A stretch of DNA of 31,954 nucleotides from a virus: positions 1 to 31,954 of the IMG/VR virus record IMGVR_UViG_3300034107_000661; one strand, written 5' to 3'. Each line of letters starts with the position of its first letter. Position 1 is the first letter of the stretch. The notes under the pieces were generated by a model that saw only the letters and a program-made list of their open reading frames with translations, made no database searches and was not told the DNA's origin. The translations under genes and the position numbers were made by a program. Shown piece by piece: positions 2,415-17,910 of the stretch.

Positions 2415-3212
2415 TCACAACGCAAGTGCAGGTGCCGTGTCAGGCGTGATCGTTGCAATTGCCGAGACGGAATAGGCGTCGAAACCCCATCCTTGAATAT
2501 TCTTTTCGCACAACCACGCACGACCATTTTGACCCCATCGCGTGCCCCAACTGTTCTGCCAACGAATGAGCCATTGCCCATCTGGTGCACGTTTCATCCC
2601 TAAACCGCCCATCACAGCGTGGTTGTGCGAGCCTGAGCGGTTCGATGGGCATCCGTTCGCGTCCAATGCGTTGAAACCGGAATTGACTGGAACGCTGAAA
2701 TTAAACGGTCTTCGTAGTTGAGTTGCAACGCACAAATCGTCCCAAGTCAGGAGCGTCGTGCCGATTTCAATTTTGAACCGCTTGCAATCATTGCGTGCCT
2801 GTTGCTTGACTGAGGACGGGTTGATCGTGCCGAATGGAACCAACGAAGTCTCGCAAGTGCCTGACTTCTCCAAGAGTTGCAACGCCTCGGCAATGCTTGA
2901 CCCGGTATCCCAACCACGGCACAAGTCGGCATAAATCAGCCAGGGAGACAGTTCGATGTGTGGCTGACCGGCAATCCAGCGAGCCACTTCCAGCGATGTG
3001 GCTGCGGCGTGTCCGTTGCAGGCACCGAACTGGCCTTGATCTTTGATATTGATTGGGAAGTTGTCCGACTTCGTTAAGTCGAACTCCACCCATTCGCTTT
3101 GCGGGATGTCAGCCAGTGGCTGCGAACCGAGCTTGAGGCTGATGGACGGTGGGCGGTTGCCCATGCCACGCCAATCGTCCCCGAAACACGGGAATAGTTC
3201 GGGCTGGCTCAT
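2415..3212 (-). CDS. Papain-like (C1A) cysteine peptidase
   Basis: The protein is 265 aa. It shows the full papain active-site set: oxyanion Gln59 and nucleophile Cys65 in DQGQFGAC, His198 in NHAVMGGLG, and Asn220 in WQNSWGTRWGQNG. Spacing from Gln to Cys is six residues, as in papain. There is no obvious signal peptide or long propeptide; about 45 residues precede the catalytic domain. The start at 3212 forms an ATGA overlap with the stop of the upstream secreted protein gene. It sits at the end of a block encoding secreted and membrane proteins, just before the capsid. Possible roles are a virion-associated or lysis-related protease, or degradation of a host surface protein; the sequence does not say which. 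Confidence 0.88.
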   Translation of the reverse strand: MSQPELFPCFGDDWRGMGNRPPSISLKLGSQPLADIPQSEWVEFDLTKSDNFPINIKDQGQFGACNGHAAATSLEVARWIAGQPHIELSPWLIYADLCRGWDTGSSIAEALQLLEKSGTCETSLVPFGTINPSSVKQQARNDCKRFKIEIGTTLLTWDDLCVATQLRRPFNFSVPVNSGFNALDANGCPSNRSGSHNHAVMGGLGMKRAPDGQWLIRWQNSWGTRWGQNGRAWLCEKNIQGWGFDAYSVSAIATITPDTAPALAL

Positions 3213-3721
3213 TTGATCGCCTCCAAGATCGCCATAATATCGGCCAGATTGGCGGGTCGAATCACCTTGACCAGCTTACCGGATGCGTCCTGCAATATCA
3301 CACAAGGCGTGCCGGTGGATTGCAGCGACGCACGGAACCCAAGGCTGTCAACGTCCGATTCGGTTGCCAGATATGACCGGTAGTTGATCGCCTTGCGTTC
3401 GACCTCTGTTCTGAGGGCGGAATCGGTGCGCCACGCTGCCTGGTCGGGGTTGTCTGGGTCAACGATCACAGATAACCACTTGACGCCCGTGATGGGATCA
3501 GGGATCGGAATCGGGATCGGTCGTGGTTGTGGTCGCGGTGCGATATCGCCGGATCGGATTATCAACACTGTGCCGGACTGCTTGCCCACCAGGTAGGTGT
3601 TGCCACCATCGGTGATCGCCCAAGATGGTTCGGACATGGCTGGCAGGGAGGTTGCCACCATGTCAGCACCGTGAGCAGATGCACCGATCATAAGTAATCC
3701 GGCCAGAAATCGTCGCATCAT
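3209..3721 (-). CDS. Secreted protein with Pro-rich linker, function unknown
   Basis: The protein is 170 aa. Residues 1-19 (MMRRFLAGLLMIGASAHGA) look like a signal peptide. A small beta-rich segment follows, then an Arg/Pro and Ile/Pro linker around residues 62-76, then a helical and beta C-terminal part. The C-terminal piece GTPCVILQDASGKLVKVIRP has one Cys after a cis-Pro-like TP and faintly resembles a thioredoxin-fold C-terminus, but the CxxC motif is absent, so no function is assigned. SD GGGAGA lies directly before the start. The stop overlaps the papain-like protease start (ATGA), so the two are translationally coupled and may work together at the cell surface. Confidence 0.7.
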   Translation of the reverse strand: MMRRFLAGLLMIGASAHGADMVATSLPAMSEPSWAITDGGNTYLVGKQSGTVLIIRSGDIAPRPQPRPIPIPIPDPITGVKWLSVIVDPDNPDQAAWRTDSALRTEVERKAINYRSYLATESDVDSLGFRASLQSTGTPCVILQDASGKLVKVIRPANLADIMAILEAIK

Positions 3722-3960
3722 TCTCCCTTGTAAACGGCGTGCATCTGTGCCTTCTGACCGTCAATCAATTCGACCAGTTCGTCGGCGGAAATCGTGCCAG
3801 GCTCACCGGAGTCAAGCGTGTCAGCAATTCGCCTGAGCAATGCTGGCAATACTGACTGAATCAGCGGCACGGCTACCAGCCTGATCAGGGGCCAAAGGAT
3901 CGCGAATGGGATCACGGGGAACCCCATTTTATTTCGCTCGTCAGATGCGTTTGGTGTCAT
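3718..3960 (-). CDS. Small membrane-associated protein, unknown
   Basis: The protein is 80 aa. I chose ATG 3960 because it forms an ATGA overlap with the stop of the preceding gene; an upstream in-frame start at 4140 would lie wholly inside that gene. Residues 13-42 (GFPVIPFAILWPLIRLVAVPLIQSVLPALL) are strongly hydrophobic and could span the membrane or form an amphipathic hairpin. The C-terminal half is polar, with an acidic stretch (SADELVELIDGQK). It ends in an ATGA overlap with the secreted protein gene at 3721. It is part of the run of small envelope-directed proteins. No family was recognised; an accessory lysis role is conceivable only from context. Confidence 0.6.
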   Translation of the reverse strand: MTPNASDERNKMGFPVIPFAILWPLIRLVAVPLIQSVLPALLRRIADTLDSGEPGTISADELVELIDGQKAQMHAVYKGE

Positions 3961-4175
3961 TTGCATTTTCCGCCGCAACAGGTTTTGACAGGTCGGAGCA
4001 AGCGTCTTGCGTACTCTCGTCCGTAGGTCTTTTGCTTGTGTCCGTAAAATGCCAGCCACGCCGGTGGCCCATTGATGACAGTCACGGTGGTGGCAACTGT
4101 CAAGGATTCCTTGACAGTTGGACACTGACCGTTTTGGCACGCTTGAGCGGTGACGAAAAAGAGTTCTGCGAGCAT
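3957..4175 (-). CDS. Small Cys-rich secreted protein, unknown
   Basis: The protein is 72 aa. ATG 4175 was chosen because AAGG sits 8 nt upstream; a longer version from 4271 would overlap the holin-like gene. The N-terminus MLAELFFVTAQA resembles a short signal peptide. The mature part begins CQNGQCP and ends RPVKTCCGGKCK, giving five cysteines clustered at the two ends. Small secreted proteins with CxNGxCP starts and CCG-type ends occur in planctomycetes (recollection, not a search), which fits the inferred host. A 27-bp inverted repeat lies inside the reading frame (4094-4120), an odd feature for coding DNA. Confidence 0.5.
   Translation of the reverse strand: MLAELFFVTAQACQNGQCPTVKESLTVATTVTVINGPPAWLAFYGHKQKTYGREYARRLLRPVKTCCGGKCK
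4094..4120. repeat. Perfect 12-bp inverted repeat inside a small ORF
   Basis: The arms CAACTGTCAAGG and CCTTGACAGTTG are perfectly complementary and separated by only ATT. The loop is too short for a good RNA hairpin with all pairs formed, so a protein-binding palindrome is as likely as an RNA element. Confidence 0.7.
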
Positions 4176-4206
4176 GTGTTGAGCCTTGTTTTTGAGGATA
4201 TTAAGG

Positions 4207-4236
4207 GATGTTCCCGAAACAGATTTCGGGAACATC
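4207..4236. terminator. Strong 13-bp stem-loop in the gap before the small Cys-rich gene
   Basis: GATGTTCCCGAAA and TTTCGGGAACATC pair perfectly around a CAGA loop (UCUG on the minus strand). It lies between the holin-like gene stop (4243) and the next start (4175). No U-tract follows on the minus strand, so it may be a partial terminator, an attenuator or an RNA-processing site rather than a classical intrinsic terminator. Confidence 0.5.
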
Positions 4237-4242
4237 ACGAAG

Positions 4243-4515
4243 TCAATCTGGATCGGGAAAGCGTCGCTCAAGTTCTTTGAGTTTCAATTCCTTTTCGATC
4301 GCCATTTTTTCACGTTTGAGGCGTATCGAATAGATCGCCTGTATCACTCCCGCTGCCGTTGCCAGCATGGCGGGGATAGACCGAATGAATGCAATCACAA
4401 CTGATTCCTCCGGCTGAATTGCAACTTCTGCAACAGTCCAACCGGAATATAAGAACCAGATTGGGACAGTGAGAAGCGAATAATCAGCCGGCGTGGGAAT
4501 ATCAGTCGGTTGCAT
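4243..4515 (-). CDS. Holin-like small membrane protein with charged C-terminus
   Basis: The protein is 90 aa. Two hydrophobic segments, about residues 13-33 (SLLTVPIWFLYSGWTVAEVAI) and 38-62 (SVVIAFIRSIPAMLATAAGVIQAIY), are followed by a highly charged helix (RLKREKMAIEKELKLKELERRFPD). Two membrane spans plus a charged cytoplasmic tail match the general build of class II holins, but small phage membrane proteins of other function look the same. It is immediately downstream of another two-span protein gene (73 aa, 5-nt gap) and of a secreted nuclease. The family was not recognised beyond this architecture. Confidence 0.55.
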   Translation of the reverse strand: MQPTDIPTPADYSLLTVPIWFLYSGWTVAEVAIQPEESVVIAFIRSIPAMLATAAGVIQAIYSIRLKREKMAIEKELKLKELERRFPDPD

Positions 4516-4520
4516 TTATG

Positions 4521-4742
4521 TTAGCTCAGCGAGGGTGGGAGTTTATCGCCTGATGCGAGGTAGCGTGCAAGCTGTGCGACTGCAAATGTGATTGCAATTC
4601 CAAGCGGCGCGATGGTATCCACAATCTTAGGCAGATCCGCTTGGATCACGCCGACGGCTGTGATAGCCCCCACAATAGCAGCACGGATGATTGTTGAACG
4701 TGCTTGGTCGTAGTTGACTTGACCCAAAATATCTTTAATCAC
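4521..4742 (-). CDS. Holin-like small membrane protein
   Basis: The protein is 73 aa. An amphipathic N-terminus (MIKDILGQVNYDQARSTIIR) leads into a hydrophobic segment at about residues 21-36 (AAIVGAITAVGVIQAD) and a second at about 43-60 (IAPLGIAITFAVAQLARYL). The tail is short and polar. Size and the two spans fit a class II holin. The start overlaps the stop of the nuclease gene (ATGA at 4739-4742). With the 90-aa and 69-aa neighbours it gives three small two-span proteins within 1.5 kb, so which, if any, is the holin cannot be decided from sequence. Confidence 0.55.
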   Translation of the reverse strand: MIKDILGQVNYDQARSTIIRAAIVGAITAVGVIQADLPKIVDTIAPLGIAITFAVAQLARYLASGDKLPPSLS

Positions 4743-5278
4743 TTTTTTTCACCTTTCGTTGGTGGCCTCTTGCGAAACTCCCAAGGTGCAATCACATTGG
4801 GATCTGACCACAAGCCCCGGCTGGCTGTCTTGGCTTGTGTCTGAGCGGATTGTAATTGGGTATCGCGTTTGGCGTATTGTTCGTACCAGTGAGCAGCACC
4901 GATTTCAACCATTTTTGTGTTGATATCGACGCCGTCGCATTTGATGCGGGCGACGGTACGACCGTAAGTCTTGGCATTTGTTTCGGTAATTACCGTCACC
5001 TTCTTGCCGTAAACGAGTTGCGACAGCATGGCACGACTCGTAAAGCCGTAAGGCTGAGATCCCTTGTCATACTTGGTTTCGACCCGTTTTCCGTTCACGG
5101 TTTTGGTGCTGACTTTGATTTCAGGTGCGTCGATTCCATATAGACGGATTTCGATCTTATCCGGTGACCCCGACACCGTGACTTTAATCGTGTCGCCATC
5201 ATGCACGTCGGTGACGGTGGCATCGTATGGAGGTGGGAGAAATGCGAGTATGAGCGTGGCGAGCGTCGCTAAGATCAT
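4739..5278 (-). CDS. Secreted thermonuclease (staphylococcal nuclease-like)
   Basis: The protein is 179 aa. Residues 1-17 (MILATLATLILAFLPPP) are a signal peptide or membrane anchor. The SNase fold follows: Asp27 and Asp29 in VHDGDT, Arg45 and Asp50-Glu53 in RLYGIDAPE, and Arg107 in YGRTVAR. These correspond to the calcium-binding Asp21/Asp40 and catalytic Arg35, Glu43 and Arg87 of the S. aureus enzyme. The C-terminal GLWSDPNVIAPWEFR motif is also typical. It should cut DNA and RNA outside the cytoplasm in a Ca-dependent way. It is coupled by ATGA overlaps to genes on both sides. A role in host DNA breakdown at lysis or in DNA entry is inference. Confidence 0.93.
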   Translation of the reverse strand: MILATLATLILAFLPPPYDATVTDVHDGDTIKVTVSGSPDKIEIRLYGIDAPEIKVSTKTVNGKRVETKYDKGSQPYGFTSRAMLSQLVYGKKVTVITETNAKTYGRTVARIKCDGVDINTKMVEIGAAHWYEQYAKRDTQLQSAQTQAKTASRGLWSDPNVIAPWEFRKRPPTKGEKK

Positions 5279-5490
5279 TCTAAATCAGCTTTCTGGACTA
5301 GTAAAAGGTCGGATACATCAATCCAGGCCGTTTGTTCTCGCATGGACAGGAGCGGCCATTCCAGATCAAGAGCCGCGCGAACCGTTTCGGCATCGCGGGA
5401 ATCATCGTTTCCAGCCAATTGCAGATCATGGAGCTTGAGCAGGGATAAAAGGCAATTGCGAAAGTGGTTCGGTAGTTCAGGCTTGATCAT
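5275..5490 (-). CDS. Small soluble protein, unknown
   Basis: The protein is 71 aa. ATG 5490 was chosen because it overlaps the upstream gene stop (ATGA 5487-5490). Predicted mostly helical, with an acidic middle (GNDDSRDAETVRAALDLEWPLL) and no signal peptide, Cys pair or clear motif. It sits between a two-span membrane protein gene and the secreted nuclease gene and ends in an ATGA overlap with the latter. By position it could be a cytoplasmic partner such as an inhibitor of the nuclease, as for other toxic exported nucleases, but nothing in the sequence proves this. Confidence 0.6.
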   Translation of the reverse strand: MIKPELPNHFRNCLLSLLKLHDLQLAGNDDSRDAETVRAALDLEWPLLSMREQTAWIDVSDLLLVQKADLE

Positions 5491-5696
5491 GTGCCGTCCC
5501 CCTTTGGAACCGTAAAACAGTGGCCCAGCACAACGCCCATTCCTACGGCAAAGCCTAGGGATCGCTGATTGACTTCCCAGATTGCCTCGCTCCAGGTTGT
5601 GCCGCCTGACTGCCATTTGTAAAGGTCAACCAACAGCAGCACGATGGCTGCGGTGATTAACGCGATGAAATTTGTGGCAGCAGTCCTGAATTTCAT
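5487..5696 (-). CDS. Small two-span membrane protein, holin-like
   Basis: The protein is 69 aa. ATG 5696 was chosen for its ATGA overlap with the PEP-CTERM protein stop; the longer frame upstream lies inside that gene. Hydrophobic segments are at about residues 9-25 (NFIALITAAIVLLLVDL) and 45-60 (SLGFAVGMGVVLGHCF), joined by a short loop WQSGGTTWSEAIWEVN. The build matches small phage membrane proteins such as holins. It is third in a set of small membrane proteins in this block. Nothing distinguishes holin from antiholin or superinfection-exclusion protein. Confidence 0.55.
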   Translation of the reverse strand: MKFRTAATNFIALITAAIVLLLVDLYKWQSGGTTWSEAIWEVNQRSLGFAVGMGVVLGHCFTVPKGDGT

Positions 5697-6211
5697 TTCA
5701 CGCACCTTATGAGGATCGCCAAAGCTGACAGTATGCCAAGCAACCACGTACGAGGCTCTGGAACGGTGTTTCCAGTGATTTGGAGTGACAAGCCGGTTGC
5801 GTTCTGCGCCCACGCAATTGGGTTATCTGCCGAAATACCAAGGTAGTAAGTCGAGTTCGGGACCATCGGGATATCGAGGTGGAAAAATGGGATATTAGAG
5901 AACCCGATCAGGCTCACTTGGTCGGATGGAGTGTATTCCAATCGCATCTCGGTCATCCACCAGTCCACAGGCTTTTGCAGCAAGGGATCGTAAAATGACA
6001 GGTACAACGATCCAGTGAAACCGGCTGGCTTGTAGATATTGAGCCTGTAATCCCACAGTTCAGTGGAATCGCCAGAATTGAATGCCTGATATATCCACTG
6101 GTCTTTGCCTGTGTAGACAAGCCCCGTGATCGGCTCAGATAGGTTATCGAACAGGATCTCTGAACCTTGTGTTGGCAGTCCCAGAAATAACAGGAGCAGT
6201 AACTTTTTCAT
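5693..6211 (-). CDS. Secreted PEP-CTERM sorting-domain protein
   Basis: The protein is 172 aa. ATG 6211 starts a clear signal peptide (MKKLLLLLFLGLPTQGSE) and overlaps the preceding stop (ATGA). Residues about 20-145 are beta-rich with many Tyr/Trp and Gly and resemble secreted PEP-CTERM proteins with a jelly-roll-like body (inference). The C-terminus, from residue 150, is VPEPRTWLLGILSALAILIR followed by CVK: a VPEP motif, a hydrophobic span and a basic end. This is the canonical PEP-CTERM signal recognised by exosortase of Gram-negative envelope systems. The phage carries no exosortase in this window, so it would rely on a host enzyme. A surface role such as superinfection exclusion or adhesion is inference. 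Confidence 0.88.
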   Translation of the reverse strand: MKKLLLLLFLGLPTQGSEILFDNLSEPITGLVYTGKDQWIYQAFNSGDSTELWDYRLNIYKPAGFTGSLYLSFYDPLLQKPVDWWMTEMRLEYTPSDQVSLIGFSNIPFFHLDIPMVPNSTYYLGISADNPIAWAQNATGLSLQITGNTVPEPRTWLLGILSALAILIRCVK

Positions 6212-6762
6212 AGTGTCCCGTTTGCATTTGAAGGTGGTGCCCACAACACGGGCATTTCGGCGGCGAATTGGGCGGGTGTTGGGACGGCCCGTAACCCCGC
6301 CAGCACGTCTGATTCGATCTTGTACGCAACTTCGTAGCACTGCTGACGAAACGACTTAGCGGCAACCCCGTCAGCGGCCCATTGAGGCACCGGACTGTCA
6401 AACCATGTGATGGCCGATGAAATGGAGTCGAAGTCGCGTGGTGCAACCTGGGCGTCCATGTGCTGGTCTAAGAGTTGTTTGAGGATCGCTTTTTGTGACC
6501 TTAAATAAGCCATTTGCTCATCAGGTGTCAGCGTGACCACAGTCCATGTTTCGGTAACTTTCGATCCTACCAGTTTCAACGTCTGAAGCAGTCGAGTTGT
6601 CGCTGGATTGATTGTCGGCTTGACCGAAGGCGTGAACGGATAGAACCCGTATTGCGCGAGGATGTCAGCGTCCAGCGTGTGAAAGTTGCTCACGTTGGCG
6701 AAGGTCGTTGGCAACACTTGAGGTGATCCGATTTGACCGTTTTTGACTTGGCAGAATTGCAT
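6208..6762 (-). CDS. Tail-fibre-associated protein
   Basis: The protein is 184 aa. The N-terminus (QFCQVKNGQIGSPQVLPTTFANVSNFHTL) and the segment PSVKPTINPATTRLLQTL resemble short tail-fibre proteins that describe their own fields. The C-terminal part, LDQHMDAQVAPRDFDSISSAITWFDSPVPQWAADG, matches the helical module found near the end of many tail-fibre and fibre-assembly proteins, where a DxxAxxRxYDS pattern is followed by a Trp-rich helix. It ends in an ATGA overlap with the PEP-CTERM gene and follows the LamG adhesin. I infer a tail tip or fibre role; no exact family is assigned. Confidence 0.6.
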   Translation of the reverse strand: MQFCQVKNGQIGSPQVLPTTFANVSNFHTLDADILAQYGFYPFTPSVKPTINPATTRLLQTLKLVGSKVTETWTVVTLTPDEQMAYLRSQKAILKQLLDQHMDAQVAPRDFDSISSAITWFDSPVPQWAADGVAAKSFRQQCYEVAYKIESDVLAGLRAVPTPAQFAAEMPVLWAPPSNANGTL

Positions 6763-6770
6763 CTAGAGCC

Positions 6771-7445
6771 TCAAGAGTTGGGGTACGGGGCTGTTGGTAC
6801 GGTGATTGTGCGGGCGTATTTGGTGATGCGGAGGTCGTCAATGTAGCCGTTCGTGTAATATGCCGCCGCATCAAATCCTCTACCAATATAAATACTGTTT
6901 GCACCAGTCGTGAAATTTGTCGTGCTGGAGGCGCTATAGTAGCTTATTCCGTCGATGAATAGCCGTAGGGTTCCACTAGATCGGCTCGCCGCAAAATGAT
7001 ACCACTGACCACTTGTGATTGTTACGGACGACTGCCGCATCGTGCCGTCATAAAAAGCCAATTTCGACTGATATAACCCAAATGTAAACGGGGTTGCAGT
7101 AGCCGCCCCTCTGGTATCCAAGAAGGTTTGTTGGCTACTTGGATTTGCAGCAATGTAGACCCATGTTTCTATCGTGAAATCGCCCGTTCCAAACTGGAAG
7201 GAACTGTTTCCTGTCAGAGACAGATAACCTGTTGACCCATTAAAACTCCCGCTTGCCCCACCGTACTTGCTTTGTGTTGTTGAAATCGTTGCGGATGTTG
7301 CAGTCACCGTCAGTGCATTCGGCCCAGAGTCCACGAATGTCGTGCTGCCGTTCGTGCCATCCATGTGCAGGAGCAGAGAGACGCTGGAAAAGTATGGGTC
7401 GCCCGTTGCCGTCTTTGTGGCATTCCTGACAATGTTGGCTAGCAT
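6771..7445 (-). CDS. LamG/concanavalin A-like adhesin domain protein of the tail
   Basis: The protein is 224 aa. ATG 7445 is chosen because it overlaps the upstream stop in TAATG; a longer frame from 7583 lies inside that gene. Residues about 25-220 are a laminin G-3-like jelly roll: VSLLLHMDGTNGSTTFVDSG, ALTVTATSATI, YGGASGSFNGSTGYLSL, FTIETWVYI, GQWYHFAASRSSGTLRLFIDG, and YIDDLRITKYAR. This fold commonly binds sugars and is frequent in phage tail fibres. It lies in a run of fibre genes after the Mtd-like protein. Likely role is receptor recognition on the host surface. No catalytic residues of glucanases were identified. Confidence 0.85.
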   Translation of the reverse strand: MLANIVRNATKTATGDPYFSSVSLLLHMDGTNGSTTFVDSGPNALTVTATSATISTTQSKYGGASGSFNGSTGYLSLTGNSSFQFGTGDFTIETWVYIAANPSSQQTFLDTRGAATATPFTFGLYQSKLAFYDGTMRQSSVTITSGQWYHFAASRSSGTLRLFIDGISYYSASSTTNFTTGANSIYIGRGFDAAAYYTNGYIDDLRITKYARTITVPTAPYPNS

Positions 7446-7999
7446 TAGAAATTCTGCCCCCCAACGTAACCCTGCCAAATCGTTCCACCATCGCTCGAAA
7501 AGAATGCGAACGAATCCACCTTGCCAGAAGTCGATGTCAGCGTTGGAGCCGTGCCGCCAGACCACTTGATAGCCGCTGGCCAAGTCACTGCCCGTGCTGT
7601 GCCGTCAGCCGTCAGGATCAGCGTGAATGAGCCGCCGGAGCCGCTTGCAGGAGGGTTGCTGATCGTCAGGGTGGTGATCGCAGCGTTGAGCGACACCGTG
7701 AAGATATTGGATGTTTCGAGATTTAATGTCAGCACGCCAGATGAGATTGTTGGGCTGGAGACCGTTTCGCTGTAATCTCTGATCTTGGCTCGAATCAGTT
7801 CGGTGTCCAGCAGATTCTGCGGCCCCGTCAGATCGCTGTAGGCTTTCGCGGCTGCGTAACCGAGCGTTGTCCATGCCGTCCCGTTGCCTAGTTTGAACTT
7901 GCCGGTGTCGGTTTCATAGCCGATCTCGCCGGATGCCAGCGTGGTGTTGGCGGATGTCCATGCTGCGGCGGTGTCGCGTCTAACTTGAATTAGTGCCAT
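7445..7999 (-). CDS. Tail-fibre protein with Mtd-like N-terminal domain
   Basis: The protein is 184 aa. The N-terminus LIQVRRDTAAAWTSANTTLASGEIGYETDTGKFKLGNG is the short beta domain found at the start of the phage major tropism determinant and many fibre proteins, where it probably mediates trimer or baseplate attachment. The remainder is beta-rich with Gly/Ser/Thr runs (SNIFTVSLNAAITTLTISN, FTLILTADGTARAVTWPAA, and a terminal WQGYVGG), a repeat-like sandwich also common in fibres. Start and stop both lie in TAATG-type junctions. No reverse transcriptase or template repeat was seen, so there is no sign of a diversity-generating cassette despite the Mtd-like module. Confidence 0.8.
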   Translation of the reverse strand: MALIQVRRDTAAAWTSANTTLASGEIGYETDTGKFKLGNGTAWTTLGYAAAKAYSDLTGPQNLLDTELIRAKIRDYSETVSSPTISSGVLTLNLETSNIFTVSLNAAITTLTISNPPASGSGGSFTLILTADGTARAVTWPAAIKWSGGTAPTLTSTSGKVDSFAFFSSDGGTIWQGYVGGQNF

Positions 8000-8409
8000 T
8001 AGTTTGCGATTGCATCCCCGCCATCGTAAGAGCCGGTGTTGGTGGTCAAGGCTGTGCCGCCGTCAATGGTGGCTGAGATTGGGGCATATCGTGCGTCGGC
8101 ATAGTCGCGAGTCAGGATTGAGTTTGCTGACCAGACTGTGACGTTGTTGAGCGTGGCGTTGGCTGACGAAAGGTTGTAACCTGCGGGAGTCATCTTGATC
8201 TCGCAACCTTCGCCCGTGTCGTCAACCGCATACATCACTGTGGATTGCGGAATATCGTAGATCTCGTAAAGCGGTGTCCCGTTGGCATCCACTTCACCCG
8301 TTGGGAGATTGGCTTCGTAGTATTGCCAGCCGCCGACACAAAATGTGCCGTTGCCCGCTCCTGCAAACGACTGGATCACGCCTTTGTGTTTTGAGGTGAA
8401 GACGCTCAT
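7999..8409 (-). CDS. Tail-fibre/tip structural protein
   Basis: The protein is 136 aa, with many Gly/Asn/Thr and aromatic residues (GVIQSFAGAGNGTFCVGGWQYYE). Near the C-terminus is SILTRDYADARYAPISA, a DxRYAP-type motif that recurs in fibre proteins just before trimeric segments. The upstream fibre protein also ends with DERYAP, so the two share a terminal module. It overlaps the following Mtd-like gene in TAATG. Function is inferred from context and motif; no catalytic or binding residues are identified. Confidence 0.6.
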   Translation of the reverse strand: MSVFTSKHKGVIQSFAGAGNGTFCVGGWQYYEANLPTGEVDANGTPLYEIYDIPQSTVMYAVDDTGEGCEIKMTPAGYNLSSANATLNNVTVWSANSILTRDYADARYAPISATIDGGTALTTNTGSYDGGDAIAN

Positions 8410-17135: not shown

Positions 17136-17540
17136 TCAGGGGATTGTCGATAGTAGTCTGTCCCTCACGTCTAGTTCGAGTGTGTCTACAGCGTCTGGGT
17201 CGTTCAGGACCGCGTCCTCACCGTATCTCGCAATCGCAGCTGCGTCATATGCCGCCGCCGCTTCTTTGGCCGTGTAGTAGCCGTACCGATGATTCCCGTT
17301 GCCGATATGGACGCCAAACGATCGGTGCGACCTGCAATAACTGATGCCAATCGTCCCGCCGCTCCTGATCTTGTGCTGCTGGTGATGTTCAACGATCGTC
17401 CCTAGCCGCCTGATCAGTTCGCCGCTGCTTGGCACCTCTTTATCAAGGTCGCGATCGCCTGGAAAGTTGCTGTCAGGGTTCTCGCTTTTGTACTGGCGGA
17501 CGATCGCGATACGTTGGTTTGTCAGGGCGGCGAGGGTCAT
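17136..17540 (-). CDS. AP2-domain DNA-binding protein
   Basis: The protein is 134 aa. Residues about 62-112 form an AP2/ERF-like domain: GISYCRSHRSFGVHIGNGNHRYGYYTAKEAAAAYDAAAIARYGEDAVLN, ending in the usual EAAxAYDxAA helix and GxxAxLN. In phages this domain is usually the DNA-binding part of an HNH homing endonuclease. Here the nuclease part seems absent; the N-terminal half is helical with several His but no HNH motif. It may be a free-standing regulator or a remnant of an intron-type endonuclease. It starts in an ATGA overlap with csrA. Confidence 0.88.
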   Translation of the reverse strand: MTLAALTNQRIAIVRQYKSENPDSNFPGDRDLDKEVPSSGELIRRLGTIVEHHQQHKIRSGGTIGISYCRSHRSFGVHIGNGNHRYGYYTAKEAAAAYDAAAIARYGEDAVLNDPDAVDTLELDVRDRLLSTIP

Positions 17541-17734
17541 GATGTTTTCCCTGTTTCAACTGCATTCATCATCTTTTTCGCCCACACAATCCGCCGATCA
17601 ATCACAACCGACTGCGGAGCGGTGAAACCCAGCTTGACCGCACCGTGATGTGATTCCGTCACCGTCAGAACGGTTTCGATTCCGTTCACCGAAATCACGA
17701 TCTCTTCGCCGATTTTGCACTTTAGAACTAGCAT
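17537..17734 (-). CDS. csrA: CsrA-family RNA-binding regulator
   Basis: The protein is 65 aa, the usual CsrA length. It starts MLVLKCKIGEEIVISVNGIE, matching the conserved MLIL.RK.GE.I.I pattern; then VTVTES-like strand, GAVKLGFTAPQSVVIDRRIVW, equivalent to VRIGI.AP..V.V.R.E. The RNA-contact residues near the N-terminus and the R near position 47 are conserved in kind, although position 6 (Arg in many) is Cys-Lys here. ATG 17734 has a very strong SD GGAGG 9 nt upstream, itself containing GGA, and a GC-rich hairpin in the leader. It likely controls translation of phage or host mRNAs. A CsrA homologue on a phage is uncommon. Confidence 0.92.
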   Translation of the reverse strand: MLVLKCKIGEEIVISVNGIETVLTVTESHHGAVKLGFTAPQSVVIDRRIVWAKKMMNAVETGKTS

Positions 17735-17763
17735 CTGCTGCAACCTCCATGTTGTGAGTGAGT

Positions 17764-17788
17764 GCCGGGGGTGTATGAATCCCCCGGC
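17764..17788 (-). promoter_or_regulatory. csrA leader hairpin
   Basis: GCCGGGGG and CCCCCGGC pair perfectly (8 bp) around a 9-nt loop ATTCATACA (minus strand). A GGA lies at the loop edge (GGGGGATTC). The hairpin is about 30 nt before the csrA start codon and upstream of the GGAGG SD, an arrangement known for CsrA self-regulation. Confidence 0.6.
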
Positions 17789-17910
17789 GCGAGTGTGATT
17801 GGTCAACTCCCCTTTAGCCCAAGTGATCTTGCCCGGCTGGAGCCGGAGAAACAGGATCGGAATCAACTAATCAGGAGTCAGTCAGCACTGGTTATCGGCC
17901 AGCCTGACAA

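What the first reader, a model, noticed from the sequence alone, without database searches (positions are those of the whole stretch)
5693..6211. Phage-encoded PEP-CTERM sorting protein
A signal peptide and a VPEP-TM-basic C-terminal tail occur in a phage gene embedded between tail-fibre genes and a small-membrane-protein/nuclease/protease block, all coupled by ATGA overlaps. PEP-CTERM proteins are host envelope proteins processed by exosortase. A phage carrying one would exploit host sorting to place a protein on the infected or lysogenic cell, for instance to block superinfection or alter adhesion.
Basis: partly seen in the sequence, partly recalled or inferred. Interest (0 to 1): 0.8.

Follow-up and report, generated by a model that had tools for sequence, protein, structure and literature searches.

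The report
Phage envelope protein with PEP-CTERM-like tail
An uncultured phage carries, coupled to its tail-fibre gene block, a gene for an exported protein whose tail end looks like the address label bacteria use to send proteins to their surface, hinting that the phage remodels the infected cell's surface, though the host and the sorting enzyme could not be checked.

Summary
The gene is real, but on the minus strand (5693-6211, 172 aa). It has a Sec signal peptide, a 132-residue ectodomain without cysteine, and the C-terminus VPEPRTWLLGILSALAILIRCVK. It scores below both curated PEP-CTERM cut-offs (PF07589 13.1 of 20.7 bits; TIGR02595 8.7 of 16), and so do all relatives (best 19.4 and 13.6). 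Yet the layout is no accident. It is kept in 13 other phage contigs, including a 45%-identical homologue at the same locus with a more canonical tail (TPEPQTW-TM-KVKR). dN/dS is 0.10, VPEP never varies among close relatives, and no other reading frame in 1.36 Mb of related phage DNA combines PEP with a C-terminal TM. New here: the gene is inherited as a unit with a tail-fibre cassette (Mtd_N-type fibre protein, putative fibre chaperone) across three unrelated phage backbones. Phages of the same backbone with another fibre cassette lack it. T5's Llp superinfection-exclusion gene, next to its receptor-binding protein gene, is the closest precedent. Best reading: a Sec-exported, exosortase-type envelope protein that modifies or occludes the infected cell's surface. 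Host and exosortase could not be found, so sorting and function are inferred. The hypervariable LamG gene in the cassette argues against a strict receptor-matching role.

The parts
5693..6211 (-). Gene for the 172-aa exported protein with a PEP-CTERM-like tail
   Evidence: translate; 13 homologous contigs; dN/dS 0.10
6161..6211 (-). N-terminal Sec-type signal peptide region (residues 1-17, MKKLLLLLFLGLPTQGS)
   Evidence: sequence inspection; helix predicted at 2-10 (low confidence); kept in the 45%-identical homologue
5696..5764 (-). PEP-CTERM-like tail (residues 150-172: VPEP, TM helix, RCVK)
   Evidence: PF07589 13.1 bits, TIGR02595 8.7 bits, both below cut-off; VPEP has no non-synonymous change among 8 aligned genes
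6208..6762 (-). Putative tail-fibre assembly protein, ATGA-coupled to the gene; the 83-97% identical version is always followed by the PEP gene
   Evidence: no curated family match, so the chaperone name is inferred from position
6771..7583 (-). LamG/concanavalin-like tail protein, hypervariable among relatives
   Evidence: PF13385 81.3 bits; 41-50% identity or absent in relatives
7445..7999 (-). Tail protein with Mtd_N (major tropism determinant N-terminal domain)
   Evidence: PF18454 50.4 bits, cut-off 26.3
7999..8409 (-). Fibre gene B, present in every PEP-positive contig that covers it
5487..5696 (-). 69-aa small membrane protein, ATGA-coupled downstream; also found in PEP-negative phages
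4739..5278 (-). Exported staphylococcal-nuclease-like protein
   Evidence: PF00565 76.4 bits

Best explanation
The gene encodes an envelope protein exported by the host Sec machinery, cut by signal peptidase, and held in the inner membrane by its C-terminal helix with the PEP motif at the periplasmic face. In a host with a PEP-CTERM system, an exosortase would then recognise PEP, remove the tail and pass the ectodomain to the cell surface or exopolysaccharide. The gene belongs to the phage's tail-fibre cassette and is probably made with it late in infection. There it most likely changes or masks the infected cell's surface, so that progeny virions and related phages do not adsorb unproductively to infected cells or debris. 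Shown: the gene, the layout, its conservation, its linkage to the fibre cassette. Inferred: export, anchoring, exosortase processing, late expression and the exclusion role.
For: Layout of signal peptide, ectodomain, PEP, TM and basic end. Ectodomain composition (0 Cys, 5 K/R in 132, S 8.3%, T 7.6%, N 6.1%) matches the PEP-CTERM cohort in Haft et al. 2006 (PMC1569441). dN/dS is 0.10, with no non-synonymous change in VPEP. A 45%-identical homologue keeps the signal peptide and TPEPQTW-TM-KVKR. A relative with 88-90% identity has a longer tail ending KAKK. Co-inheritance: the gene and the same fibre genes occur together on three backbones (major capsid protein >=76%, about 26% and about 22% identical to the window), while same-backbone phages with other fibre genes lack it (Fisher p = 0.006 within one backbone). 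All 13 contigs with a full-length close copy of the upstream gene carry it. Precedent: T5 Llp, an envelope lipoprotein that blocks the receptor, is encoded adjacent to and downstream of the receptor-binding protein (PMC9586334).
Against: All copies score below the curated PEP-CTERM cut-offs. The basic end is weak in the window and nearly absent in G012 (LIGRFI). Host and exosortase are unknown. The LamG gene in the same cassette varies freely while the PEP protein stays 94-97% identical in the main group, which a receptor-specific blocker should not show. Adjacent genes can be co-inherited without a shared function. No fold match gives a binding function.
Confidence: 0.4

Rival explanations
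1. It is a Sec-exported protein anchored in the inner membrane by its C-terminal helix, with no exosortase processing. It acts in the periplasm, for instance blocking DNA entry of superinfecting phages, or in lysis. The PEP is incidental or a relic.
For: Scores below the PEP-CTERM cut-offs; weak basic end; neighbours are small membrane proteins and exported enzymes.
Against: VPEP is invariant among close relatives and PEPxT is kept at 45% identity; no other C-terminal TM frame in these phages has PEP. There is no lipobox cysteine, so it is not a unimolecular spanin.
Confidence: 0.25
2. It is a surface-conversion (moron) protein that alters exopolysaccharide, adhesion or aggregation of lysogens, not phage adsorption.
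For: An integrase is present; PEP-CTERM proteins act in flocs, adhesion and biofilms (PMC9012009 abstract; PMC12188702); the gene is optional among relatives.
Against: ATGA coupling to tail-fibre genes and no promoter-like sites above chance suggest late, not lysogenic, expression; linkage to the fibre cassette is not expected.
Confidence: 0.15
3. It is a virion or tail-fibre-associated protein, and the hydrophobic ends serve assembly.
For: It always travels with the fibre cassette and is translationally coupled to it.
Against: An N-terminal signal peptide plus a C-terminal membrane anchor is unusual for a cytoplasmically assembled tail protein; no structural family match.
Confidence: 0.1
4. 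It is a passenger host gene, recently picked up and without function for the phage.
For: No homologue in named phages; ectodomain of unknown family.
Against: dN/dS 0.10 and a 45%-identical homologue at the same site show long-term selection in phages.
Confidence: 0.05

Closest known systems
PEP-CTERM proteins sorted by exosortase/EpsH (PF07589, TIGR02595; Haft et al. 2006, PMC1569441)
   Same: Signal peptide, ectodomain poor in Cys and basic residues and rich in Ser/Thr/Asn, PEP, terminal TM, some basic residues at the end
   Different: Encoded by a phage; one copy per phage; below curated cut-offs; short or weak basic end in most copies; host exosortase unknown
Phage T5 Llp and T1/phi80 Cor superinfection-exclusion proteins (PMC9586334)
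   Same: Phage-encoded envelope protein; Llp is encoded next to and downstream of the receptor-binding protein gene
   Different: Llp and Cor are small lipoproteins; this one is larger, has no lipobox and uses a different C-terminal targeting signal; no receptor or exclusion shown
Unimolecular spanins (T1 gp11 type; from general knowledge, not tested against a model)
   Same: N-terminal export signal plus C-terminal membrane helix
   Different: No lipobox cysteine, a PEP motif, and linkage to tail-fibre genes

Membership tests
PEP-CTERM | Near-invariant PEP followed by a TM helix at the extreme C-terminus | tested here: met
   VPEPRTWLLGILSALAILIRCVK; PEP invariant in all homologues
PEP-CTERM | Cluster of basic residues after the TM | tested here: inconclusive
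   IRCVK in the window, KAKK and KVKR in two relatives, only GRFI in G012
PEP-CTERM | Score above curated cut-off (PF07589 20.7 bits; TIGR02595 16 bits) | tested here: not met
   13.1 and 8.7 bits; best relatives 19.4 and 13.6
PEP-CTERM | N-terminal signal peptide and no other TM in between | tested here: met
   By inspection of the sequence; SignalP was not available
PEP-CTERM | Ectodomain poor in Cys and basic residues, rich in Ser/Thr/Asn | tested here: met
   0 Cys, 5 K/R in 132, S 8.3%, T 7.6%, N 6.1% against values in PMC1569441
PEP-CTERM | Exosortase/EpsH homologue in the cell where it is made | not testable with these tools
   Host not found; relatives cannot be drawn for a virus record
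Choice-of-anchor R domain (NF041539) | Score above the family cut-off | tested here: not met
   No match at E <= 10 in six records
Superinfection-exclusion protein of the Llp/Cor type | Envelope lipoprotein with a lipobox cysteine | tested here: not met
   No Cys in the signal region
Superinfection-exclusion protein of the Llp/Cor type | Blocks receptor binding by the phage's own receptor-binding protein | not testable with these tools
   Needs expression and adsorption assays
Superinfection-exclusion protein of the Llp/Cor type | Encoded next to the receptor-binding genes | tested here: met
   Adjacent to and co-inherited with the Mtd_N-type fibre cassette

The most novel reading that the evidence does not exclude
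A phage superinfection-exclusion or surface-masking protein that uses the host exosortase pathway in place of a lipoprotein signal, and that moves between unrelated phages together with the tail-fibre cassette.
Probability: 0.28. Interest if true: 0.8.

Novelty: new variant of a known kind. Interest (0 to 1): 0.52.

Why it matters
I found no phage-encoded PEP-CTERM-like protein in the papers searched (titles, abstracts and term counts only, one paper opened) or, at tblastn sensitivity, in the 50,697 GenBank phage records. If true, it would be a virus using the exosortase pathway, whose export route is still unclear, and the linkage to a tail-fibre cassette makes a concrete adsorption experiment possible.

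Tried and rejected
Host search in 84,980 genomes with capsid and terminase alignments: nothing. Plasmid and phage records with the papain-like protein, primase, protease and the integrase of G012: only distant or mixed hosts. AlphaFold2 model too weak (pLDDT 56, 10 sequences), with no fold match at E <= 0.001. Choice-of-anchor R domain, suspected from memory: not matched. Flanking host DNA in longer relatives: two relatives (G014, G023) have direct terminal repeats, as circular genomes do, and no host flank was recognised. Unimolecular spanin: rejected, no lipobox. A planctomycete host is a guess from gene content and was not tested.

Full report
What is there. The window is an IMG/VR virus record of 31,954 bases. 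It carries terminase, portal, prohead protease, HK97-type capsid protein, primase and integrase genes. The finding lies on the minus strand: 5693-6211 encodes 172 residues, MKKLLLLLFLGLPTQGSEILFDN...LQITGNTVPEPRTWLLGILSALAILIRCVK. It overlaps the upstream ORF (6208-6762) and the downstream ORF (5487-5696) by ATGA.

Is the PEP-CTERM reading more than chance? The window protein scores 13.1 bits with PF07589 (cut-off 20.7) and 8.7 with TIGR02595 (cut-off 16). Relatives reach 19.4 and 13.6, still below. Formally it is therefore not filed as a PEP-CTERM member. Other evidence says that the motif is real. Twelve close relatives and one 45%-identical homologue at the same locus (L022) keep the signal peptide, PEPxT and a terminal TM. 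The distant one and L011 have longer, more canonical tails (IIAKVKR, IIAKAKK). Over eight aligned genes dN/dS is 0.10 overall, 0.14 in the TM and tail, and there is no non-synonymous change in VPEP. The ectodomain has no Cys, 5 K/R in 132, and S/T/N of 8.3/7.6/6.1%, matching the PEP-CTERM cohort described by Haft et al. (PMC1569441). Among 2617 distinct frames from 1.36 Mb of related phage DNA, the ten with a PEP/PDP near the end and a terminal TM all belong to this family.

What it is linked to. A matrix of window genes against 25 related records shows that the PEP gene occurs on three backbones. The capsid protein is 76-82% identical to the window's in G010 and G013, about 26% in G004 and G005 of the G001-G009 group, and about 22% in G012. 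In every one the upstream gene (83-96% identical) is present, and fibre gene B is present wherever the contig covers it. By nucleotide comparison G012 shares only this cassette with the window, and its other genes differ. Relatives with the window's backbone but other fibre genes (G014, G020, G018, G019, G023, G026, G028, G016) lack both fibre gene B and the PEP gene; within this backbone 3 of 3 against 0 of 8 gives Fisher p = 0.006. This treats related records as independent, so it overstates the strength. The reverse search agrees: all 13 contigs with a full-length close upstream gene carry the PEP gene. More distant fibre-B cassettes (L114, L115; 46%) have the nuclease gene directly after the upstream gene and no PEP gene. 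Fibre gene C has the Mtd_N domain (50.4 bits), so this looks like a receptor-binding module. What follows the PEP gene varies between backbones (small membrane gene, nuclease gene, or others), so its firm partner is the upstream, fibre side.

How it most likely works. The anatomy implies Sec export, signal peptide cleavage and C-terminal membrane anchoring; in a host with exosortase the tail would be cut and the ectodomain sent outward, as modelled for PEP-CTERM proteins (PMC1569441, PMC12188702). Coupling to fibre genes suggests late expression; the promoter-like sites in the region are no more than shuffles give. The linkage to the receptor-binding cassette recalls T5 Llp, which lies adjacent to and downstream of the receptor-binding protein gene and blocks the receptor (PMC9586334). 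I therefore put an exclusion or surface-masking role first, at 0.4. The main counter-argument is that the LamG gene in the cassette is swapped or diverged to 41-50% while the PEP protein stays 94-97% identical in the main group. Export, processing and function are inferred, not shown.

What could not be tested. The structure model is weak and gives no fold match. Literature searches of the open library found no phage-encoded PEP-CTERM protein; subscription papers are not covered.

Noticed in passing
window 17537-17866 (-): CsrA-like carbon storage regulator (PF02599 38.9 bits, cut-off 27; true start probably at residue 45), a phage-encoded global regulator.
   Followed up: no
window 7445-7999 (-): Tail protein with a major-tropism-determinant N-terminal domain; I did not look for a diversity-generating retroelement.
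   Followed up: no
window 6771-7583 (-): LamG tail protein is the most variable gene of the fibre cassette (41-50% or missing), and the copy in L098 appears to hold two LamG-like units.
   Followed up: partly
window 3209-4271 (-): Exported thioredoxin-like protein and a small Cys-rich protein (CxNGxCP...CCGGKC) beside a papain-like protease, conserved in relatives: an envelope-directed block of unknown role between fibre and capsid genes.
   Followed up: no
L066+L067 (G014, 36,299 bases, 84-base end repeat) and L074+L075 (G023, 34,823 bases, 127-base end repeat): Near-complete relatives with direct terminal repeats and the same backbone; the window is probably about 88% of such a genome, opened between capsid and tail genes.
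   Followed up: partly
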